Assembly (NCBI RefSeq): GCF_005771565.1
Contig: NZ_VAWA01000013.1
Span: forward strand, 1 to 64,000
DNA: 64,000 nt
Direction of reading: 5' to 3'
DNA from: Nesterenkonia sphaerica
Lineage (GTDB): Bacteria; Actinomycetota; Actinomycetes; Actinomycetales; Micrococcaceae
The position numbers and the translations under genes are program-made. This document shows positions 4,901-5,192 of the stretch, piece after piece. The notes under the pieces are model-generated. The model searched no databases and was not told the origin of the DNA. It saw only the letters and a list, made by a program, of their open reading frames with translations. Each line of letters starts with the position of its first letter. The first letter of the stretch is position 1.

Positions 4901-5029
4901 AAGATAAGATCTCCATCACCCTTTGAGGTGTGAAGGCTCCCAGTAGACCACTGGGTTGATAGGCCAGAAATGGAAGCACAGCAATGTGTGCAGTTGACTG
5001 GTACTAATAAGCCGACCACTTACACACCA
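1913..5029 (+). rRNA. rrl: 23S ribosomal RNA
   Basis: The large-subunit rRNA starts near GTAAGTGTTTAAGGGCGCATGG and contains the conserved landmarks TAACTATAACCATCCTAAGGTAGCGAAATTCC near 4040 (quoted partly: CCTAAGGTAGCGAAATTCC) and AGTACGAGAGGACCGG near 4780. The 5' GTAAGTG at 1915-1921 pairs with CACTTAC at 5017-5023, which places the 3' end near 5029. The same CACTTAC occurs again at 5158-5164 because the 3' end of the gene is duplicated, so the real mature end could be either copy. Confidence 0.95.
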
Positions 5030-5192
5030 CCCCACCCCCATTGAGCCCCGAATCCATCACCCTTTGAGGTGTGAAGGCTCCCAGTAGACCACTGGGTTGA
5101 TAGGCCAGAAATGGAAGCACAGCAATGTGTGCAGTTGACTGGTACTAATAAGCCGACCACTTACACACCACCCCACCCCCATTGAGCCCCGA
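4912..5192 (+). repeat. Perfect tandem duplication of the 23S 3' end (2 x 140 bp, period 141)
   Basis: Positions 4912-5051 are repeated without mismatch at 5053-5192; one extra base (5052) lies between. Each copy contains the last ~115 bases of 23S (CCCAGTAGACCACTGGG hairpin through GGTACTAATAAGCCGACC) plus ~22 bases of spacer. Both copies keep the CACTTAC that closes the rRNA with its 5' end, and both lie inside the long processing stem. A duplication like this inside an rRNA operon is unusual; an assembly error is possible but would need a spurious exact 141-bp insertion. Confidence 0.95.

What the first reader, a model, noticed from the sequence alone, without database searches (positions are those of the whole stretch)
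4912..5192. 23S rRNA 3' end duplicated in tandem inside the operon
A perfect 140-base repeat with 141-base period doubles the last ~115 bases of 23S plus spacer. Both copies keep CACTTAC (5017-5023 and 5158-5164), which closes the rRNA with GTAAGTG at 1915-1921, and both lie inside the long pre-23S processing stem. The precursor therefore offers two alternative 3' ends; mature 23S could carry an extra 141 bases or be trimmed. Absolute identity suggests a very recent event, active gene conversion, or an assembly artefact.
Basis: seen in the sequence. Interest (0 to 1): 0.75.

Follow-up and report, generated by a model that had tools for sequence, protein, structure and literature searches.

The report
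Assembly-made copy of 23S rRNA end
The doubled end of the 23S ribosomal RNA gene is almost certainly not in the bacterium: it looks like the overlapping ends of two assembled pieces set side by side without being merged, at the point where two near-identical rRNA operons were collapsed into one.

Summary
The repeat is in the sequence as described: 4912-5051 equals 5053-5192, 140 nt, one base (A, 5052) between, period 141. It is best explained as an assembly artefact. (1) Its right edge is exactly the last base shared with the genome's second rrn locus (contig C17), and base 5052 is the C17 allele. (2) Both ends of the window's contig overlap other contigs by exactly 141 nt. (3) The contig starts at the first base common to two upstream flanks, so the operon is a collapsed repeat. 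(4) The same assembly has two joins of the form [X]N[X] with X unmerged, 42 nt and 39 nt; the rrn join has that form with A in place of N. (5) An exact doubled-motif pattern was found in 0 of 29 congeners and 0 of 393 other genomes of the class, sets that overlap. In named public genomes 12 of 15 comparable 23S doublings have N between the copies and 2 have period 127. No reads were available, so this is not proved. Interest is low.

The parts
1..141 (+). Start of the contig: 16S 5' end, overlapping contig C4 by exactly 141 nt and contig C22 by exactly 30 nt (left edge of the collapsed rrn repeat)
5..1532 (+). 16S rRNA
   Evidence: Rfam RF00177
1846..1876 (+). 5' arm of the pre-23S processing stem
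   Evidence: 90% complementary to 5269-5299; that it is the processing stem is the usual reading, not tested
1913..5027 (+). 23S rRNA, ending in copy 1
   Evidence: Rfam RF02541, model 1-2925
4912..5051 (+). Copy 1: 23S 3' end plus first spacer bases; read as the right end of the collapsed rrn piece
5052..5052 (+). Single base A between the copies; equals the C17 allele at the first base where the two rrn loci differ; stands where two other joins of this assembly have one N
5053..5192 (+). Copy 2: the same 140 nt; read as the left end of the unique downstream piece; ends at the last base shared with C17
5269..5299 (+). 3' arm of the pre-23S processing stem
5390..5506 (+). 5S rRNA
   Evidence: Rfam RF00001

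Best explanation
Assembly artefact. The genome has at least two rrn loci that are alike up to and including the first spacer bases after 23S. The assembler collapsed them into one piece, which ended where the two loci begin to differ. A scaffolding or gap-filling step then set this piece end to end with the unique downstream piece (spacer, 5S, tRNA-Pro and on) with one filler base between, and did not merge the 140 nt that both carried. The filler base was resolved to A, the allele of the other operon. Shown here: the repeat, the shared boundary, the C17 allele, the contig-end overlaps of 141-142 nt, and sister [X]N[X] joins in the same assembly. Inferred: the collapse itself, the order of steps, and that the filler was once N. 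The assembler and scaffolder are not identified.
For: Right edge of the repeat (5192) is the last base shared by C5 and C17: C17 goes on CCCCGA-AAAGGG, C5 goes on CCCCGA-GAGGG, and copy 1 goes on CCCCGA-A. C17 dovetails with copy 1 by 31 nt including that A, with copy 2 by 30. C5 start overlaps C4 by exactly 141 and C22 by 30; C5 end overlaps C13 by 141; C4 end overlaps C30 by 142. C17 stops 30 nt before the loci diverge. Sister joins: 42 nt-N-42 nt at C1:247275 and 39 nt-N-39 nt at C22:9106; also 10 nt either side of 15 N at C22:1717-1731; that is 3 of the 5 N runs in 385,340 bases sampled outside the window. The exact doubled motif at a spacing of 126-156 is in 0 of 29 other genomes of the genus and 0 of 393 other genomes of the class (the sets overlap). 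Each of 29 relatives' loci examined has one copy of the 23S-end motif; 50 of 57 relatives had some match, and loci were returned for 29.
Against: No reads or coverage were available, so it is not proved. The filler here is A, not N. The doubled block is 140 nt, not exactly the 141-142 of the other contig-end overlaps, and the [X]N[X] sister joins have shorter X (42, 39). Two of the 5 N runs show no unmerged overlap and a third only 10 nt. No second 141-period repeat was found in the 449,340 bases scanned, about 16% of the genome. Absence in other species would also be seen for a real strain-specific event.
Confidence: 0.97

Rival explanations
1. A real, very recent tandem duplication (replication slippage or end joining) of the 23S 3' end in this operon, giving a precursor with two possible 3' ends.
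For: Both copies keep CACTTAC and lie inside the processing stem. The copies are identical, as a recent event would leave them.
Against: It must explain by chance that the right edge falls on the very base where the two rrn loci diverge, that the period equals the overlap of this contig's ends with other contigs, and that the extra base is the other locus's allele. No congener searched has it.
Confidence: 0.02
2. A real unequal exchange between the two rrn operons: copy 1 from the C17-type operon, copy 2 from the C5-type operon, kept identical by gene conversion.
For: Base 5052 is the C17 allele, so copy 1 does look C17-derived.
Against: The switch would have to occur one base after the divergence point, with no shared base at the junction (C before copy 1, A before copy 2). 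It does not explain the 141-nt overlaps of the contig ends or the [X]N[X] joins.
Confidence: 0.01

Closest known systems
Unmerged contig-end overlaps at rRNA operons in draft genomes
   Same: The end of 23S and the following spacer present twice at a join. In public drafts the same picture has Ns at the junction: for example L054 (Cryobacterium suzukii) and L050 (Paenibacillus lutrae), where copy 1 runs into a different spacer allele before a single N and copy 2. That these are unmerged overlaps is read from the Ns.
   Different: Here the single filler base is A instead of N, so the join is not marked.
23S 3'-end doublings with period exactly 127 (L048 Paenibacillus radicis, L057 Streptomyces mexicanus)
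   Same: Perfect tandem repeat of the 23S end without N. [quoted passage not shown]
   Different: Period 127 there, 141 here. That those two are artefacts is inferred from the number alone.

Membership tests
Assembly artefact: unmerged overlap at a scaffold join | Repeat length equals the overlap length of that assembly's contig ends | tested here: met
   140 nt, period 141, against long dovetails of 141, 141 and 142 among 59 true contig ends read of 172; off by one base or two, and shorter dovetails of 16, 30 and 31 also occur
Assembly artefact: unmerged overlap at a scaffold join | Repeat edge lies where two repeat loci diverge | tested here: met
   5192 is the last base shared with C17
Assembly artefact: unmerged overlap at a scaffold join | Other joins of the same assembly show the same form | tested here: met
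   C1:247275 and C22:9106, one N between identical 42- and 39-nt blocks; 2 of 5 N runs, 3 of 5 if the 10-nt case is counted
Assembly artefact: unmerged overlap at a scaffold join | Spanning reads show one copy | not testable with these tools
   no reads held
Genuine tandem duplication in an rrn operon | Present in relatives or in an independent assembly | tested here: not met
   0 of 29 congeners, 0 of 393 other genomes of the class. A strain-specific event would also give zero, and no second assembly of this strain was seen.

The most novel reading that the evidence does not exclude
A real 141-nt tandem duplication inside one of two rrn operons, made by unequal exchange with the other operon, leaving a functional 23S precursor with two competing 3' ends.
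Probability: 0.02. Interest if true: 0.5.

Novelty: not a real feature. Interest (0 to 1): 0.04.

Why it matters
It matters as a caution. A perfect tandem repeat at the end of an rRNA operon in a draft genome, with a length equal to the contig-end overlap and an edge at the point where two operons diverge, should be taken as a join and not as biology. If it were real it would be a natural test of how the 23S 3' end is chosen during processing.

Tried and rejected
Tried: scan of public genomes for a doubled 23S 3'-end motif 126-156 nt apart. 27 stretches came back. 15 are 23S by BLAST with the window's 23S end at E 1e-5 and 12 are not; among the 12, L053 (Clostridium puniceum) has by eye one true 23S end at a contig start, but its second motif shares only 9 bases. 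Of the 15 (12 genomes: Lederbergia citri counts three times, Sphingobacterium athyrii twice), 12 have N between the copies, 2 have period 127 without N, and 1 (L044, Cohnella kolymensis) has neither: 48 identical nt at period 131 with diverged copies near a contig end. L044 was not explained.

Literature: false duplications in assemblies; 775 papers, 12 listed, listing seen only; partial or tandem duplication of 23S/rrn; 3 papers listed, none on this by title; collapsed repeats and rRNA operons; 16 papers, 12 listed; MEGAHIT with 'k-max 141'; 45 papers hold both terms, 6 listed, listing only. Passages were read in PMC5481147 and PMC4301005. The idea that a de Bruijn k of 141 was used is a guess from the overlap length; the assembler was not identified. 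That some scaffolders write a single N for a negative gap is recalled, not looked up.

Rejected: gene conversion as the cause of perfect identity, because an unmerged overlap is identical by construction. A biological RNA-processing model was not pursued once the joins were found.

Full report
The observation. The window holds one rRNA operon: 16S 5-1532, 23S 1913-5027, 5S 5390-5506, then tRNA-Pro at 5629-5705. A perfect 140-nt repeat lies at 4912-5051 and 5053-5192, period 141. It is the only direct repeat family of at least 60 nt found in the window. So the letters are as described. One detail was missed: a single base, A at 5052, stands between the two copies. Copy 1 is preceded by C, copy 2 by that A; seen as 141-nt units (4911-5051 and 5052-5192) the two differ only at that first base.

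The second operon. The window is contig C5 (73,274 bases) of an 86-contig, 2.79 Mb draft genome. Besides C5 itself (and a short match of the stem arm to its partner), one other contig, C17, matches the region downstream of 23S, over window 5163-5510 at 97% identity, and it stops there. Many small contigs of the genome read N to me, so further rrn pieces cannot be ruled out. The C17 end begins with 30 nt that equal the last 30 nt of the repeat and then goes its own way: CCCCGA followed by AAAGGG, where the window has GAGGG. The two loci therefore share sequence up to exactly base 5192, the right edge of the repeat. Copy 1 is followed by A, the C17 base. C17 dovetails with copy 1 by 31 nt, and with copy 2 by 30. 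In other words copy 1 leads toward the C17 locus for one base, and copy 2 leads into the C5 locus.

The left edge. The window begins at the 5' end of 16S. Contig C4 ends with exactly the first 141 nt of the window and contig C22 with exactly the first 30; next to the shared block C4 and C22 have different bases. The contig thus starts at the first base common to two upstream flanks. This is the picture of two operons collapsed into one piece, with two flanks on each side. That rRNA operons fall at contig boundaries and gaps in a draft is described for Paenibacillus polymyxa CR1 (PMC4301005, abstract and passages seen).

The overlap length of this assembly. I read 59 true contig ends of 172; 27 contig starts that I asked for read mostly N and were dropped. 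Exact dovetails of 14 nt or more among the 59 are: 16 (C15-C21), 30 (C86-C33, C22-C5), 141 (C4-C5 start, C13-C5 end) and 142 (C4 end-C30). The same run gives the 31 nt between C17 and copy 1. Six further pairs of ends share a common last 29-30 nt. So both ends of the very contig that holds the repeat overlap other contigs by exactly 141 nt, which is the period of the repeat.

Other joins of the same assembly. In 385,340 bases of this genome sampled outside the window there are five N runs. At C1:247275 one N stands between two identical 42-nt blocks, at C22:9106 one N between two identical 39-nt blocks, and at C22:1717-1731 fifteen N with a 10-nt match across; the other two show none. The form [X] one filler base [X] is thus present twice elsewhere in this assembly, with the filler still N. 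The rrn repeat has the same form with X = 140 and the filler A. The simplest account is that the filler was resolved to A by reads of the C17 locus, which carry A at that place. This last step is inferred.

Relatives. Of the 57 relatives compared, 50 have some match to the 601-base query; one of these, G014, matches only at the stem arm. Loci came back for 29 of them, and each has a single copy of the 23S 3'-end motif, up to two mismatches allowed. A search for the exact doubled motif at a spacing of 126-156 nt found it in the window's own genome and in 0 of 29 other genomes of the genus and 0 of 393 other genomes of the class. The two sets overlap, and how many of the 393 carry an assembled 23S end with that exact motif was not counted. 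In a scan of the GTDB collection (84,980 species by the tool's description), 27 stretches matched a looser doubled pattern. Of the 15 that are 23S, from 12 genomes, 12 have N between the copies, 2 have a period of exactly 127, and 1 has neither. [quoted passage not shown] Four of the 12 have a single N (L041, L050, L054, L056), and in L050, L054 and L056 copy 1 runs into a different spacer sequence before the N, the same two-allele picture as here.

Verdict. Four coincidences (edge at the divergence base, period equal to the contig-end overlap, odd base equal to the other allele, sister joins of the same form) are expected of an unmerged contig overlap and are unexplained by a biological duplication. 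The third alone is weak, one in four by chance. I hold the artefact at 0.97. Raw reads would settle it.

Noticed in passing
G000 contig C5, about 66,830-67,635 (L169:6830-7635), outside the window: About 12 perfect copies of a 67-nt unit in tandem, containing the short inverted repeat GCGGGGTTTCCCCGC; 67 is not a multiple of 3. Nature unknown.
   Followed up: partly
G000 contig C22, 10,700-11,118 (L171): A 146-nt exact direct repeat with period 273 and no N between the copies.
   Followed up: no
L044 (Cohnella kolymensis NZ_JXAL01000007.1), near the contig end: The last part of 23S and the following spacer appear twice, 131 nt apart, with copies that differ at several bases and no N between. 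It could be a real partial duplication or two spacer alleles joined.
   Followed up: partly
L048 (Paenibacillus radicis) and L057 (Streptomyces mexicanus): Perfect 23S-end doublings of period exactly 127 and no N; probably unmerged overlaps left in public records.
   Followed up: partly
window 23831-23945: TPP riboswitch above the Rfam gathering score.
   Followed up: no
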